A stretch of DNA of 57,384 bases, from positions 1 through 57,384 of the forward strand of contig JAGHUT010000020.1 of assembly GCA_018064645.1 (NCBI GenBank). Direction: 5' to 3'. Numbering within the stretch: position 1 is the first letter of the stretch; each line of letters begins with the position of its first letter. Shown in pieces: positions 44,367 to 49,367 of the stretch. This DNA comes from Candidatus Crickella merdequi. Its GTDB lineage: Bacteria; Bacillota; Clostridia; Peptostreptococcales; Anaerovoracaceae. Made by a program: the position numbers and the translations under genes. The notes under the pieces are model-generated. The model was not told the origin of the DNA. It searched no databases and saw only the letters and a list, made by a program, of their open reading frames with translations.

Positions 44367-44403
44367 CTTGATTGACCCGCCCCAAAATGGTGTATCGCTT
44401 GCA
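44367..44403 (+). repeat. Diverged array repeat R0 upstream of cas1
   Basis: CTTGATTGACCCGCCCC then AAAATGGTGTATCGCTTGC: a 37-base relative of the 36-bp repeat of the 46.5-49 kb array, in the same orientation, with one to two extra C and changed ends. It is closest to the variant repeat R6. It could be a stray array unit. It could also be a tracrRNA-style anti-repeat: a plus-strand transcript would pair with the reverse-strand repeat over most of its length with an asymmetric bulge. A TGGTATGCT extended -10 lies six bases before it on the plus strand. Confidence 0.6.
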
Positions 44404-44471
44404 AAAAAATAAGCACTATTGCTCGAGGTGAAGAGGTCCAATCCCTCAACAGCAAGAGCTGTGCTTACTTT
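44404..44471 (-). ncRNA. Candidate structured small RNA next to R0
   Basis: From the minus-strand promoter at 44478-44506 a transcript of about 68 bases would form a long stem: AAGCAC with GTGCTT, TTGCT with AGCAA and GAGG with CCTC inside, followed by ATTTTTTT as terminator just before R0. On the plus strand the same sequence follows R0 and would be the hairpin after an anti-repeat. No known RNA family is recognised. Confidence 0.45.
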
Positions 44472-44903: not shown

Positions 44904-45036
44904 ATTCAAAATAGTAGAGGTCATATTTACTAACGAGCGTTAAGGGAGGCACCTGAACCCCCAGTGTTTTCAATGGGCATAGAAAAAGCCCCGAGATTTC
45001 TCTCGAGGCTATGTGGTGCGCGATCAGGGGTTCGAA
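44904..45036 (-). repeat. Partial tRNA-Lys 3' end with flank, duplicated att region
   Basis: The 23 bases at 45014-45036 (TGGTGCGCGATCAGGGG then TTCGAA) match the 3' end of the tRNA-Lys gene at 49292-49314 with one mismatch. The flank is related as well: a terminator hairpin (GCCTCGAGA/TCTCGGGGC), a GTGTTTTCA motif and an ATTCAAAAT stretch occur in the same order at both places. This is the footprint of integration into the 3' end of tRNA-Lys and marks the left border of the island that carries cas1-cas2. Confidence 0.7.
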
Positions 45037-45227: not shown

Positions 45228-46133
45228 GTGGGCTTTAGAACAGTTGAAATAAGTAAGGCGTGTGAGATTCATATTAAAGACGGGCAACTGGAAGTAACAT
45301 CTAAAGATGGTATGACCTTAATTCCTGTTGAGGATATAAATCAGATTATGGTTCATGGTGCAAATATAAGACTTTCAACGATGGACTTATCTATACTTAG
45401 CCAAAACAAAGTAGCAGTAACGACATTGGATGAGAAGTACCTTCCGACAGCAATAGTACTACCGTTTGAGGGTAATTCGCGGCAATCTAAAATGATGCAC
45501 GCACAGATTGCAACCGACAGGGAGATATATTTAGATCTGTGGTGCCGGATTATTAAACAAAAGATTTACAATCAATCACGGGCCTTATCTATCATGGGTC
45601 TTGATGGAGCAGAAGATATTATCAAATATGCTGAGGGAGTTTCTTTCGATAATGTAAATCGGATGGAGGCATTGGCGGCAAAAGAATATTTTGCATATTA
45701 TCATGCCGGTTTGAATCGAAGGACAGACGATCCTGTTAACAGTAGATTAAATTATGGATATGCAGTGGTCAGAAGTGCCATAGTCAGAAGTCTTGTTGCA
45801 TCTGGCTTTCACCCAACCTTTGGAATACATCATGACAGTCAGTTAAATGCATTTAATCTTGCGGATGATCTTATAGAACCATATCGAGCAATGGTAGATG
45901 TTGTTGCTCATAATAATGTTGGAACAAATCTGCAATTATCAAAGGTTGAACGAAAAGCAATAGCACATATCCTGCATAATGCATGCATGGTATGCGGAGC
46001 AAAGGTAAATGTTATGGCATCTATTGATATTATGGTAGAAAGTCTTAAAAGGATTATTCTTGATAAATCGTCAGAACCGCTTCAGCTGCCAACTATTCTC
46101 CCTGTTGAAAGTATGGAGGGAATAACGGAATGA
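45228..46133 (+). CDS. cas1: Cas1 integrase, type II-like
   Basis: A 301-residue Cas1, the integrase that inserts spacers into CRISPR arrays together with Cas2. It has the type II pattern: start GFRTVEISK, then IRLSTMDLSILSQNKVAV and KYLPTAIVLPFEG. The metal-binding active-site residues are present: E147 (RMEALAAKEYF), H201/H202 (GIHHDSQLNAF) and the Asp/Glu cluster at 213-217 (LADDLIEPYR). So it should be catalytically able. It overlaps cas2 by four bases. No cas9 or csn2 lies in the window. An array with very long spacings follows cas2. GTG start with AGGAGG. Confidence 0.95.
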   Translation: MGFRTVEISKACEIHIKDGQLEVTSKDGMTLIPVEDINQIMVHGANIRLSTMDLSILSQNKVAVTTLDEKYLPTAIVLPFEGNSRQSKMMHAQIATDREIYLDLWCRIIKQKIYNQSRALSIMGLDGAEDIIKYAEGVSFDNVNRMEALAAKEYFAYYHAGLNRRTDDPVNSRLNYGYAVVRSAIVRSLVASGFHPTFGIHHDSQLNAFNLADDLIEPYRAMVDVVAHNNVGTNLQLSKVERKAIAHILHNACMVCGAKVNVMASIDIMVESLKRIILDKSSEPLQLPTILPVESMEGITE

Positions 46134-46435
46134 GATTGATTGTAATACTTAGTCCTACTGACAAGTGGGGCACAAAAGCGGAATTTACCAAACTGCGAAA
46201 ATTCCTCTTAAAGGATGGATATATTCGCATTGCTCCTGAAGTTTTTATGAGAATAGTTCAAAACAGAAAAGCAGCAGAGAAGCATTATAGACGAATAGAG
46301 GAGGTTGCTCCCAAAACAGGCACTGTAAGATTGCTTCGAATAACAGAAAAACAATACAAGAACATGTATTATGTGGCTGGTGATGAAGACTATCAGGAAA
46401 AAACAGTTGGAGCAAACTGCCACATAATGATATAA
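46130..46435 (+). CDS. cas2: Cas2, type II-like
   Basis: A 101-residue Cas2 dimer-forming subunit of the adaptation complex. It is recognised by FRKFL-like KLRKFLLKDGYIRI, VFMRIVQNRKAAEKHYRRI and VRLLRITEKQY. The first strand reads MRLIVILSPTDKW: the metal-binding Asp usually found in FDLP at this place is replaced by Ser-Pro. Nuclease activity is therefore unlikely, which does not prevent integration, because Cas2 acts mainly as a scaffold there. The start overlaps the end of cas1 (ATGA-type junction). Its stop is 80 bases from the first array repeat, a distance suited to a leader. Confidence 0.92.
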   Translation: MRLIVILSPTDKWGTKAEFTKLRKFLLKDGYIRIAPEVFMRIVQNRKAAEKHYRRIEEVAPKTGTVRLLRITEKQYKNMYYVAGDEDYQEKTVGANCHIMI

Positions 46436-46520
46436 AGTAAGCAAATAATAGAGTGAATTGTTTTTCTCGGTACTATATGCAGTACTGAAAAAGATGAAAT
46501 ATACAAGATGTAATACTTGA

Positions 46521-46760
46521 ATGACCCGCCAAAACTGGTGTATCGTTCAACCAAAAGGGACATTGATATTGATAAAAAAGCAAGAAGAGGATTTCTTGGC
46601 TGTCATTATACGTCTTGCGCTTGAATCTGACACACAAGGTTATAAAAATTCTATATTAACATTTCATAGGATCAGAAAACGTTCAATAAGAAGTAAGATT
46701 AAAAAAAGTGTCACAATATATGAAAAAGATGGTATAATAAAAAAAGAATTATTGAAGTAG
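46521..46760 (+). CDS. Short frame starting inside repeat R1
   Basis: The first interval holds a 79-codon frame whose ATG lies in the repeat (MTRQNWCIVQ is repeat-encoded). The following 69 residues are basic, with RIRKRSIRSKIKKS near the end. No ribosome site precedes the ATG. I do not recognise it; it may be the tail of a captured gene fused by chance to the repeat. A terminator-like GCACGGTAAACCGTGC with T6 closes the interval before R2. Confidence 0.3.
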   Translation: MTRQNWCIVQPKGTLILIKKQEEDFLAVIIRLALESDTQGYKNSILTFHRIRKRSIRSKIKKSVTIYEKDGIIKKELLK

Positions 46761-47028
46761 AAGAATGTGTCGTCTACACACCTATAAGGTCAAAAGAGAT
46801 GCGGGAAATGGCAGACCCGCCAATAATTCTTCGAAATAGAAGAAGCACGGTAAACCGTGCTTTTTTCCTTGAATGACCCGCCAAAACTGGTGTATCGTTC
46901 AACTGACTGTACCTTCCATGTGCTTTTAATGTCTTCCCTGCCTGGACAGCCCGTCAGGGCATAATAAAAGAGAGCCTCTCGGCTCTCTGATTAACTTTAT
47001 TTTATTAGTTTACGTGGTGTCTCAACAA

Positions 47029-47301
47029 CTACGCTGGTAACCTACTGGACTCATAGTCTCTTGTTAAAGCTCCGGTGTTTATGTCTATCAAGACATGAGC
47101 TGCATACTCCATAGGAGTTTCGCCACCAAAAGACCATTCCACGTCACGGGTATCCATTCCAAGCCAATAATGAAAGAGGCCATCATTAAGTATTCCGCAT
47201 GAAGCGCAGCAGTCGTCTTTATGCTGCATAACAAAATGCCTGCCTATCATATCAATGCAAGCGTCGAGTGCCAAACTTTTAAGCTCGGATTTTTCTATCA
47301 T
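47029..47301 (-). CDS. Small hypothetical protein in interval 2
   Basis: A complete 90-residue gene on the minus strand with AGGAGGG eight bases before the ATG and a GAGAGCC-GAGAGG-type terminator after it (46970-46990). The protein has CASCG and a DCC pair, and aromatic residues, but no known domain. It is the only interval that contains what looks like a whole expression unit, so the element may carry cargo and not only fragments. Confidence 0.55.
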   Translation of the reverse strand: MIEKSELKSLALDACIDMIGRHFVMQHKDDCCASCGILNDGLFHYWLGMDTRDVEWSFGGETPMEYAAHVLIDINTGALTRDYESSRLPA

Positions 47302-47429
47302 AAATCAGCCCTCCTTCTATTTTTAGTAATTTTACTCCAGTCTGCACAGAAAAATCAAGGGTGTGCGGCCCGATTTAATCAAACAAGTTTTCACTTGAAT
47401 GACCCGCCAAAACTGGTGTATCGTTCAAC

Positions 47430-47805
47430 TAAAAAAAGCTCAGATATATCAGAGGCTACGAGGGACCAATTCCCAAGCAGCATGAAAGTATCTGAACTTG
47501 AGGATAGAATATCACAGTTCAACGAGAAACTCAATACTTATAAGAAAAATCGTGGAATAAATTATTCTATATCAGATTATGCTAATGATACTTCTGCCAA
47601 CAGTAACACCAACAAAAATTCCATAGAGGTTGAGTCAGCACTTGATGATCAGGGAGTAGCACTTACAGAAAGTGGTACAGCGGTTAGATATTCGGTAGAG
47701 TCATGGGCAAACACAAAGAAAGATAAACTCAAGGAGAAGCTGCTTGCTGTTGTAGACAAGGATGGAAATCCAATCTACAGCGAAGAAGAAGTTGATCTTG
47801 AATGA
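47430..47805 (+). pseudogene. Internal piece of a mobile-element protein in interval 3
   Basis: The whole interval is one open frame without its own start, entered from the repeat. It reads SSMKVSELEDRISQFNEKLN, then a Ser/Asn/Thr-rich linker, then RYSVESWANTKKDKLKEKLL and PIYSEEEVDLE. The style resembles linker segments of very large proteins of conjugative elements and phages of gut Clostridia. The frame ends at a stop just inside repeat R4. Both ends are cut by the repeats, so this is a fragment. Confidence 0.5.
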
Positions 47806-47917
47806 CCCGCCAAAACTGGTGTATCGTTCAACGCAGGCAGTGATAGTTTGAATGTGGACGAGGACTTATACGATGTTACTATGAGGTATCTGAGTGACTT
47901 ATGGGGGTTCGATTATG

Positions 47918-48139
47918 AAAGGCGAAAGATATGATGAGTACATGGCGAAATGCAATGCCGTTATTAGAGCCTACGCGGAAGAGGAAGACGCAATAATGAA
48001 AAAATATCGGGATAAATACGGACCTTTTGACGAACAAGTGGGGCGTATGTGTTCTCGAGAATTAAGACCTCTTGAAAAGCACCGTAATAAACAGCTTAAT
48101 GAGTTGAAAGCTGAATATCGCGATGTGTTTGATGAATAA
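47918..48139 (+). CDS. Small charged protein in interval 4
   Basis: A 73-residue helical, highly charged protein (MKGERYDEYMAKCNAV start; ends LKAEYRDVFDE). No recognised family. It is followed after 12 bases by the beginning of a YjcQ-like gene with its own GGAGG site, as in phage gene strings. Confidence 0.45.
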   Translation, partial: KGERYDEYMAKCNAVIRAYAEEEDAIMKKYRDKYGPFDEQVGRMCSRELRPLEKHRNKQLNELKAEYRDVFDE

Positions 48140-48151
48140 TGGAGGCACACA

Positions 48152-48289
48152 ATGGCTAAGAATGATATGCCGGTCATAATCTACAAGATACTCAAGTATC
48201 TGTACGAGTGCATGAAAGCCGGCAAGCAACCTGATGAGACAGACTTCTGCGCTGAATCTAAGTTGATAAGCATACCGCAGTTGTCTTGA
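48152..48289 (+). pseudogene. Truncated YjcQ-like gene cut by repeat R5
   Basis: The 45-residue frame MAKNDMPVIIYKILKYLYEC, then MKAGKQPDETD, matches the N-terminus of YjcQ-type phage proteins, which are about 100 residues long. The frame runs into repeat R5 and stops at a TGA inside it. The gene has been cut at its middle by the repeat border, showing that the interval boundaries ignore gene boundaries. Confidence 0.5.
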
Positions 48290-48320
48290 ATGACCCGCCA
48301 AAACTGGTGTATCGTTCAAC

Positions 48321-48505
48321 CGAGTAGAGAGACACTAGTTAAGACAATTGGTCACGAATATGTGCACTGTCAGCAAATCAGCGAGTATGGTTTGGTACAG
48401 GATAGTGTACAGATAGGACGGTTTGAAAGAGAAGAGAGCGCTTCAGAGGAGAAATGGTGGGCATCATACCAAGAGAAAAAGAGCTCAAATACAAAACAAG
48501 ATTAG
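48321..48505 (+). pseudogene. C-terminal piece with HExxH-like motif in interval 5
   Basis: The frame begins in repeat R5 and reads RETLVKTIGHEYVHCQQISE and then FEREESASEEKWWASYQEKK to a stop. HEYVH is the HExxH zinc motif of ImmA/IrrE- or minor-head-type metalloproteases of mobile elements. The N-terminus is missing. It overlaps the start of the next small gene (48454), an arrangement usual in compact mobile DNA. Confidence 0.45.
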
Positions 48506-48714
48506 AGCTGGTAGAGGGGTTACAGGCACTTCTTGAAGCTAAAATTTCGGTGTGCCCTATTTGTGGAGGCGTGTTGCAGGCGGACTTCTACAGGTGGGAG
48601 GATGGACTGGGATACGGCATGATTTTCTGTGACAACTGCGAGTCAAGGTATAACATTTGTCGAATTAAATATCCAGATTATACAAAGGCCAATACGATAC
48701 TCCTCAGGGACTAG
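48454..48714 (+). CDS. Small zinc-ribbon protein in interval 5
   Basis: An 86-residue protein with two CxxC pairs, CPICGGVLQAD near residue 36 and CDNCESRYNIC near residue 61, a likely zinc ribbon. A CAGAGGAGAA site precedes its ATG. It is complete, ending 11 bases before repeat R6. It has the look of a small phage or ICE gene. Confidence 0.5.
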   Translation: MVGIIPREKELKYKTRLELVEGLQALLEAKISVCPICGGVLQADFYRWEDGLGYGMIFCDNCESRYNICRIKYPDYTKANTILLRD

Positions 48715-48992
48715 CAATCAAATAACTTGAATGACCCGCCCAAAATGGTGTATCGTTCAAAAAAAGTATTAGAGAAAAAATAAAGGGTGCGGTCCACCGC
48801 CAAACCCGGCAGTGAAACACACCCTTTGATTCATAGATACATATCTACGACGACTATATCATACATAGTAGCATTGTCAAGCAATTCAGGCGCTCTTGAG
48901 AGTGCTTTTTGTGCACTCGTAGCTCAGAGGGAAGAGCGGAAGACTGCACAGCCTTCCTTGAATGACCCGCCGAAACTGGGGTATCGTTTAAT

Positions 48993-49291: not shown

Positions 49292-49367
49292 TGGTGCGCG
49301 AGCAGGGGTTCGAACCCTGGACATCCTGATTAAGAGTCAGGTGCTCTGCCAGCTGAGCTAATCGCAC
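49292..49367 (-). tRNA. tRNA-Lys (CTT anticodon)
   Basis: A 76-base tRNA with encoded CCA. D arm GCTC...GAGC, anticodon stem CCTGA/TCAGG with loop CTCTTAA (anticodon CTT), T arm CAGGG-TTCGAAC-CCCTG and an acceptor stem with one T-C mismatch at pair 7-66. Its 3' 23 bases are repeated at 45014-45036, showing use as an integration site. Confidence 0.93.

What the first reader, a model, noticed from the sequence alone, without database searches (positions are those of the whole stretch)
45228..48992. Cas1-Cas2 pair followed by a CRISPR-like array with giant spacers
Seen: type II-like cas1 and cas2, an 80-base leader-like gap, then seven copies of a 36-bp repeat with inverted ends, separated by 316, 490, 367, 452, 405 and 195 bases. 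No cas9 is in the window. Known Cas1-Cas2 complexes measure spacers of about 30 bases. Inference: either a variant complex captures DNA roughly ten times longer, or recombination has replaced ordinary spacers, or the repeat is a separate mobile element that chose this place. The first would be a new kind of DNA memory or gene-capture array.
Basis: partly seen in the sequence, partly recalled or inferred. Interest (0 to 1): 0.9.

Follow-up and report, generated by a model that had tools for sequence, protein, structure and literature searches.

The report
Cas1-Cas2 array storing gene-sized DNA
Some gut bacteria carry CRISPR-type DNA-inserting enzymes next to an array that stores DNA pieces of hundreds to thousands of bases, in two cases whole resistance genes, instead of the usual thirty, so it looks like a gene-capturing relative of CRISPR.

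Summary
Window Cas1-Cas2 belongs to a clade (13 full-length Cas1, support 100/99) of type II-like Cas1-Cas2 followed by a leader and, in most, 36-nt repeats spaced by gene-sized inserts: 46 intervals in 15 arrays, 68-2697 nt, median 459. Repeat sequence differs between subclades. Of 18 more distant Cas1, 16 have ordinary 65-77-nt periods. Seven related copies of one module, alike through the last base of repeat 1, each carry a different first insert, as expected if inserts enter at leader-repeat 1. In one genome a 253-nt insert has an exact full-length second copy at a phage tail gene, and two more inserts match other contigs of that genome; in another genome one insert starts as own DNA. Many inserts are gene fragments; some hold whole genes: aph(2'')-IIa plus aac(6')-Im in Fusibacillus, a GNAT gene plus aph(2'')-Ii on a Campylobacter coli plasmid. 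Best reading: a Cas1-Cas2 that lost Cas9-dependent trimming captures long DNA with repeat duplication. Whether the array serves gene capture, memory or nothing is open. No experiment was done; the literature check covered open-access PMC only.

The parts
45228..46133 (+). cas1, type II-like, 301 aa
   Evidence: TIGR03639 230 bits; E147, H201/H202, D213/D214 invariant in 9 clade members; nearest solved structure for the clade profile E. faecalis Cas1 5xvn
46130..46435 (+). cas2, 101 aa, overlaps the end of cas1
   Evidence: TIGR01573 56 bits; nearest solved 5xvn chain E
46436..46515 (+). leader, 80 nt
   Evidence: its last 15 nt recur before the first repeat of another genome's array (L121)
46516..46551 (+). 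repeat 1 (leader-proximal)
46552..46867 (+). insert 1, 316 nt; 137 nt of its 3' part 78% like a stretch of a same-genus genome (G001); first ORF matches phrog_29609
46868..46903 (+). repeat 2
46904..47393 (+). insert 2, 490 nt; one 90-aa ORF on the minus strand
47394..47429 (+). repeat 3
47430..47796 (+). insert 3, 367 nt; one reading frame open from end to end (gene fragment)
   Evidence: weak relatives (34-36%) in two viral contigs
47797..47832 (+). repeat 4
47833..48284 (+). insert 4, 452 nt; 81-aa ORF
48285..48320 (+). repeat 5
48321..48725 (+). insert 5, 405 nt; ORF with weak primase-type zinc ribbon match (just below the Pfam cut-off)
48726..48761 (+). repeat 6, 3 changes
48762..48956 (+). 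insert 6, 195 nt; its end looks like the 5' part of a tRNA gene (by eye; ARAGORN calls no tRNA there)
48957..48992 (+). repeat 7 (leader-distal), 4 changes
44367..44407 (+). degenerate eighth repeat copy upstream of cas1

Best explanation
A clade of type II-derived Cas1-Cas2 integrases, without a Cas9 beside them, inserts long DNA (about 0.1 to 2.7 kb seen, possibly 8 kb) at the junction of leader and first repeat and copies the repeat each time. SHOWN by comparison: the clade, the repeats, the giant inserts, the difference of inserts from the end of repeat 1 on, and copies of resident DNA as inserts. INFERRED: that this Cas1-Cas2 is the enzyme that does it; that loss of the Cas9 trimming step explains the length; and that the array acts as a gene-capture device, somewhat like an integron, whose useful inserts (for instance drug-resistance genes) are kept by selection while many are random fragments.
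For: (1) Clade-wide: 46 closed intervals in 15 arrays, 68-2697 nt, median 459, 1 of 46 below 100 nt. The 13 full-length Cas1 form one clade at 100/99; 10 of these 13 loci show two or more repeats, always with giant intervals. Of the 18 other Cas1 in the tree, 16 had three or more repeats at 65-77-nt steps; 2 did not in the DNA held, one of them having two copies 66 nt apart. Repeat sequence differs between subclades and is 36 nt long except in L067, where its ends are unclear. (2) Seven related copies of one module (L008-L013 and the C. coli plasmid) are alike up to the last base of repeat 1, then every one has a different insert; L009 and L010 share again the last repeat plus 224 nt beyond it, with unrelated inserts between. 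(3) Resident sources: in genome G191 insert 3 (253 nt) is identical over its whole length to a stretch that overlaps a phage major tail protein gene; both ends of insert 1 match the ends of two contigs that carry the two halves of its own subtilase gene, and the 103 nt held of insert 7 match another contig end; in G050 insert 1 begins as DNA that follows on at another contig's end. (4) The most changed repeat is the leader-distal one in the window, L066, L071, L032 and L146, as in CRISPR arrays. (5) 14 of 40 inserts tested are one open frame from end to end against 2.6 expected from shuffles: cut-out gene pieces. (6) Whole genes also occur: aph(2'')-IIa and aac(6')-Im in L009 insert 2; a GNAT gene and aph(2'')-Ii between two exact repeats on p13786. 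(7) cas9 over the cut-off in 2 of 18 genomes of the group against 2 of 2 controls. In the S. pyogenes type II-A system Cas1-Cas2 alone integrated untrimmed substrates and Cas9 trimmed them to about 30 bp (PMC8034620, passages).
Against: No biochemistry. Most arrays are from draft or metagenome assemblies and many end at contig ends. Only 4 inserts have a resident source, and of these one alone is known whole. The window's inserts had no near-identical source in its own genome, in 46 other same-genus genomes or in 349 family genomes, where only 6 and 2 candidates per genome were scored. The phage search found none for the window array. A cas9 gene lies on the same contig as the decayed L015 locus, and G049 has a separate canonical cas9-cas1; weak matches below the cut-off occur in G349 and G351. 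In L121 the first and the third of three repeats carry changes, and the first L071 copy has two, so the wear of repeats is not strictly distal. Insert orientation shows no significant bias (19 against 10, p 0.14), so capture for expression is not shown. Cas2 is shortened in L010. Repeats away from a clade cas1 exist (G024, G105, G179, G350, G356). The trimming work used short substrates, and the passages say the complex hardly processed long double-stranded ones, so it does not show that Cas1-Cas2 can insert hundreds of bases.
Confidence: 0.8

Rival explanations
1. It is an immune memory: giant inserts are records of invaders, read out without Cas9 by some other route (for example long antisense RNA or an effector elsewhere).
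For: Some inserts are phage or mobile-element DNA: capsid fragment in L009 insert 1, topoisomerase III fragment in L063, endolysin families among inserts (members not named by the call), phage structural genes beside an exact repeat in L077 and L078.
Against: A host subtilase gene is captured in G191 and own DNA in G050, and host-type genes occur in L010 and L013; no accessory gene shared across the clade was found in 14 loci, several cut short by contig ends; no effector family was seen at the window locus among the proteins scanned and no cas9 in its genome.
Confidence: 0.2
2. Function-less by-product: a Cas1-Cas2 cut off from Cas9 lost its length control and drops random DNA into the array, riding on mobile elements.
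For: Many inserts are gene fragments, and resident DNA is taken; several loci have a partial or decayed cas1 (L014/L068, L015, L069, L071).
Against: Active-site type residues are intact in 9 members of several genera, and cas1 dN/dS is 0.12 and 0.09 in two comparisons with L013 that are not independent of each other (cas2 0.22 and 0.25); the element, as read in L010, carries little besides mobility genes, a regulator and this module.
Confidence: 0.25
3. Ordinary short spacers were replaced by long DNA through recombination, or the 36-nt repeat is itself a mobile element that settled beside cas2.
For: Homologous recombination between identical repeats is to be expected; repeats occur away from cas1 in a few genomes.
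Against: No array of the clade keeps short spacers (1 of 46 below 100 nt); subclades use different repeat sequences in the same place after cas2; the commonest form of the repeat had no match in 50,697 phage and 20,395 E. coli records, matched 3 of 72,556 plasmids, all beside cas2, and two of 2.9 million viral contigs by exact pattern. Other subclades' repeats were not searched that way.
Confidence: 0.04
4. Assembly artefact: arrays with long gaps are wrongly joined contigs.
For: Many arrays end at contig ends, one has a run of N inside a repeat, and the G050 contig runs 4.1 kb into a copy of another contig.
Against: The window array lies well inside 57 kb of one contig; plasmid records titled complete (L. 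eligens, two records, without cas1; C. coli p13786, with partial cas1) show cas2, leader and widely spaced repeats; break points are what duplicated host DNA would cause (inference).
Confidence: 0.01

Closest known systems
Type II CRISPR-Cas adaptation module (Cas1-Cas2, e.g. E. faecalis 5xvn)
   Same: Homologous Cas1 and Cas2, 36-nt repeats next to a leader, inserts that differ from the leader side on, worn distal repeats
   Different: No cas9 at the locus, inserts of median 459 nt and irregular length instead of about 30, resident DNA taken
Integron
   Same: A row of captured segments at a recurrent short site beside the integrase gene, resistance genes among them
   Different: Cas1-Cas2 instead of IntI; direct repeats, one per insert; many inserts are gene fragments, not cassettes. 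Integron features are recalled, not tested against a model
Casposon
   Same: Cas1 homologue linked to insertion of kilobase DNA (PMC6452270, passages: stand-alone cas1 in 12-18 kb elements with terminal inverted repeats)
   Different: Here Cas1-Cas2 seems to insert other DNA into its own array; the element seen in six genomes carries a serine recombinase and a MobV relaxase
erm(N) inside the Campylobacter coli CRISPR-Cas9 array
   Same: A resistance gene between CRISPR repeats (PMC11823653, passages)
   Different: That array has cas9 and ordinary 29-30-nt spacers with a single gene insert

Membership tests
Type II CRISPR-Cas | type II Cas1 and a Cas2 | tested here: met
   TIGR03639 and TIGR01573 over cut-off
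Type II CRISPR-Cas | direct repeats next to a leader, newest insert at the leader | tested here: met
   7 of 7 module copies differ right after repeat 1; order of arrival inferred from comparison, not watched
Type II CRISPR-Cas | regular spacers of about 30 nt | tested here: not met
   46 of 46 intervals longer, 68-2697 nt
Type II CRISPR-Cas | cas9 effector with the locus | tested here: not met
   none in the window genome (92% complete); over cut-off in 2 of 18 group genomes
Type II CRISPR-Cas | PAM next to the protospacer | tested here: inconclusive
   only 4 sources with one or both flanks; no shared motif seen by eye
Type II CRISPR-Cas | tracrRNA | not tested
   no search was made
Integron | IntI tyrosine integrase and attC sites | not tested
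   no IntI or attC model was run; no neighbour gene shared across the clade was found
Integron | inserts are whole gene cassettes | tested here: not met
   14 of 40 are end-to-end open gene pieces, though some inserts hold whole genes
Casposon | Cas1 moves its own element, flanked by TIRs, with a PolB gene | tested here: inconclusive
   three element genes scanned are a serine recombinase, MobV and a regulator; TIRs and PolB were not searched for

The most novel reading that the evidence does not exclude
A categorically new gene-capture system: a Cas9-free Cas1-Cas2 that builds arrays of gene-sized DNA, travels between gut species on an integrative element, samples host, phage and plasmid DNA, and has carried aminoglycoside-resistance genes as array units, one of them onto a conjugative plasmid of Campylobacter coli.
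Probability: 0.45. Interest if true: 0.97.

Novelty: categorically new. Interest (0 to 1): 0.93.

Why it matters
CRISPR adaptation is held to measure spacers of about 30 bp. A clade that stores hundreds to thousands of bases makes the length ruler testable by comparison, offers a natural Cas1-Cas2 that may insert long DNA at a fixed site, and points to a route, apart from integrons and transposons, by which gut bacteria may gather genes, resistance genes included. It would also be a case of an immune adaptation module turned into a gene collector.

Tried and rejected
Tried without result: window array against 50,697 phages (none) and L063 array (two weak hits); clade Cas1 in IMG/VR (none); IMG/VR relatives of single inserts (two at 34-36%, none); own-genome sources for the window inserts (none). 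Orientation of insert ORFs: 19 against 10 with 15 undecided, p 0.14, dropped. Start signal at the leader side of inserts: 10 of 49 against 7.5% of positions inside inserts; post hoc, only suggestive. Leader promoter: an exact TGNTATAAT in 8 of 13 leaders, but in several it appears to overlap the end of cas2, so weak. Repeat as an RNA hairpin: clear in 3 of 6 repeats folded, not in the other 3. Shared neighbour genes: none clade-wide in 14 loci except shadow frames of cas1-cas2, and synteny between L064 and L071. In 6 of 6 complete L063 inserts the last two bases are C/T then A; not seen in L032, not pursued. Rows dropped: the L015 interval (decayed cas1), and L032 interval 9 (run of N inside a repeat) counted as two pieces; from the tree L015, L056, L059, L068, L069 (partial cas1), L018 (frame not recovered), L058 (same gene as L073) and L053 (no array in the short DNA held, although L035 and L050, alike in this, were kept). 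The Cas1 model (mean pLDDT 77.9) was not compared with structures because fold search was off, and is not used.
Full report
1. Observation. The window holds a type II-like cas1 (45228-46133) and cas2 (46130-46435), 80 nt of leader, and seven 36-nt repeats from 46516 to 48992 with intervals of 316, 490, 367, 452, 405 and 195 nt. Within 3 mismatches there are 6 copies and none in 100 shuffles. The genome held (1.61 Mb in 103 contigs, 92% complete) has the pattern only here, 7 of 7, and no cas9 match. The two distal copies are the most changed.

2. A clade, not a freak. The scan of GTDB contigs gave 12 relatives, 8 of them at 67-74% identity. Of 349 genomes of the family, 24 have a Cas1 match at E 1e-20 or better; six full-length ones at 45-49% identity (G201, G191, G050, G093, G169, G062) and partial ones in G049, G174 and G184 form the nearer set. 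Among 393 genomes of the order 6 matched the clade profile at E 1e-60, all in the same family. Closed intervals: 46 in 15 arrays, 68-2697 nt, median 459, one below 100 nt; one interval from a decayed locus was dropped and one with a run of N was counted as two pieces. Five of the 15 arrays (L032, L071, L121, L144, L146) have no full-length cas1 in the DNA held. Repeat sequences differ between subclades (for example GTTATAATAAGAGATGAAAAGGGAAGATAGTGTAAC in L063 and GTTTGACGAAGGGTAGAAAATAGGAGGTCGTCAAAC in L066) and are 36 nt except in L067, where the ends are unclear. In the maximum-likelihood tree of 31 Cas1, the 13 from these loci are one clade (100/99). Ten of the 13 loci show two or more repeats; three (L012, L062, L064) show one repeat before the contig ends, L064 after 4.1 kb. 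Of the 18 other Cas1, fifteen from the same family and three from Bacteroidota, 16 have three or more repeats at 65-77-nt steps; L035 and L050 do not in the DNA held, L035 having two copies 66 nt apart.

3. Inserts differ from the leader side on. L008 to L013 are six genomes under different names whose shared segment of about 5.3 kb (87-99.98% identical by pair) ends at the last base of repeat 1, with 0-4 bases more. The C. coli plasmid p13786 shares 932 nt up to that same base with L009 at 99.9%. Seven of seven have a different sequence right after repeat 1. L009 and L010 agree again from their last repeat through 224 nt beyond it, with unrelated inserts between. p13786 and L011 share the 41 nt that L011 still holds after its last repeat. 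The element, as read in L010, codes for a serine recombinase (CcrB-like, below that model's cut-off), a MobV relaxase (over cut-off) and a helix-turn-helix regulator besides cas1-cas2. G050 and G049 have cas1-cas2 in the same gene neighbourhood with different inserts; only part of cas1 matches in G049.

4. Sources. In G191 insert 3 (253 nt) has an identical copy of its whole length in the same genome, overlapping a phage major tail protein gene. Insert 1 begins and ends as the host's own subtilase gene, whose two halves lie at the ends of two other contigs, one beside a murE-like gene (named by eye); its middle was not seen in a second copy. The 103 nt held of insert 7 match another contig end with 1 change. 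In G050 insert 1 begins as DNA whose upstream part ends contig C1, with 1 mismatch in 130 aligned bases, and whose downstream part opens contig C2. A query of 80 insert ends against 14 genomes found resident copies only for G191 and G050, plus a repetitive, partial match in G049; in the larger genomes only the best 21 candidates were scored. Duplicated host DNA would also explain why so many arrays stop at contig ends (inference). Other inserts: HK97 capsid fragment (L009) and topoisomerase III fragment (L063); bactofilin plus the start of a kinase gene (PyrH by eye; Pfam AA_kinase) and a chemotaxis receptor (L010), PadR-HAAS-DUF4097 genes (L013), where I matched the Pfam families, which names no members, to the frames by eye. 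Fourteen of 40 inserts tested are a single open frame from end to end, 2.6 expected from shuffles. Two IMG/VR contigs have an exact repeat beside 8.4 and 7.2 kb that include phage structural genes, in L077 with the frame running into the repeat; these may be still longer inserts, or phage DNA that received a repeat.

5. Whole resistance genes. L009 insert 2 (Fusibacillus kribbianus, 1684 nt) holds aph(2'')-IIa and aac(6')-Im frames that match their models over almost the full length and over the curated cut-offs. The same two genes (1488 nt, 96.4-96.5%) are on five plasmid records of Klebsiella, Citrobacter and Enterococcus, where this form of the repeat was not found. On p13786 the interval between two exact repeats (1458 nt) holds a GNAT gene and aph(2'')-Ii, next to tet(O) and with a cas1 that lacks its first part. 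The paper on that plasmid (PMC10800408, passages) notes cas1 and cas2 and reads them as immunity; the passages I saw do not mention an array. These cases fit gene capture, but resistance genes are also what sequencing favours, so they do not prove function.

6. Mechanism. Most likely the Cas1-Cas2 joins both ends of a long DNA to the two ends of repeat 1, and repair copies the repeat, as in CRISPR adaptation. In S. pyogenes type II-A Cas1-Cas2 alone integrated untrimmed substrates and Cas9 trimmed them to about 30 bp; those substrates were short (PMC8034620, passages). A Cas9-free descendant could then lack the ruler (inference). cas9 passes the cut-off in 2 of the 18 group genomes (G049, beside its own canonical Cas1, and G356, on the contig of the decayed L015 locus) and in both controls. 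The residues named in parts are invariant in 9 members (their catalytic role is recalled). Cas1 looks constrained in two comparisons that share L013 (dN/dS 0.12 and 0.09).

7. Against it, and unknown. The repeat also occurs without a clade cas1 at hand: G105 (eleven copies, one broken by a run of N, on a contig that ends there), G179 and G024 (one copy each), G350 contig 46 and G356 contig 59. Window inserts have no identified source. Genome searches with DNA scored only the best few candidates per genome. Function rests on inference. Literature: ten searches of the PMC open-access library; no title or start of abstract listed there concerns giant-insert Cas1-Cas2 arrays. Only the listings were seen, save the passages cited; preprint servers and most subscription papers are not in it. 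Stand-alone adaptation modules are mentioned as existing (PMC6452270, passages).

8. Verdict. A real, conserved, unusual DNA array that looks like a capture system. It fails two defining features of CRISPR-Cas (short regular spacers, effector at the locus), so I do not file it there, though it works like the adaptation half of it.

Noticed in passing
window 44367-44407: Degenerate eighth repeat copy upstream of cas1, outside the tRNA-Lys-like duplication, so an older array or rearrangement may have stood there.
   Followed up: partly
window 45014-45036 and 49292-49314: A 23-nt stretch of the tRNA-Lys gene end (96% alike) flanks the cas1-cas2-array segment, as in an integrated island; same-genus G024 has a tRNA-Lys in a similar setting.
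   Followed up: partly
L033 4794-4829 (G024): One exact copy of the window repeat in a genome without this cas1, about 4 kb from that tRNA-Lys; origin unexplained.
   Followed up: partly
L072 8598-9281 (G191): Relic: cas1 fragment with two degenerate repeats 369 nt apart, about 29 kb from the intact locus.
   Followed up: no
L015 5358-7291: Decayed locus: cas1 stops matching at codon 118 where a repeat-like sequence begins; repeats in both orientations, cas9 on the same contig.
   Followed up: partly
L063 10623-12656: All six complete inserts end in C/T then A before the repeat, perhaps a selection motif.
   Followed up: no
L146 12397-13137 (Lachnospira eligens megaplasmid): cas2, leader and two repeats 676 nt apart without a cas1 match; 13 kb compared are identical in two complete records; a natural remnant in a cultured species.
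   Followed up: partly
L077 8371-8406 and L078 221-256: Exact repeat directly beside 7-8 kb with phage structural genes in two IMG/VR contigs.
   Followed up: partly
L010 6903-7162: cas2 frame shortened in an otherwise near-identical element.
   Followed up: no
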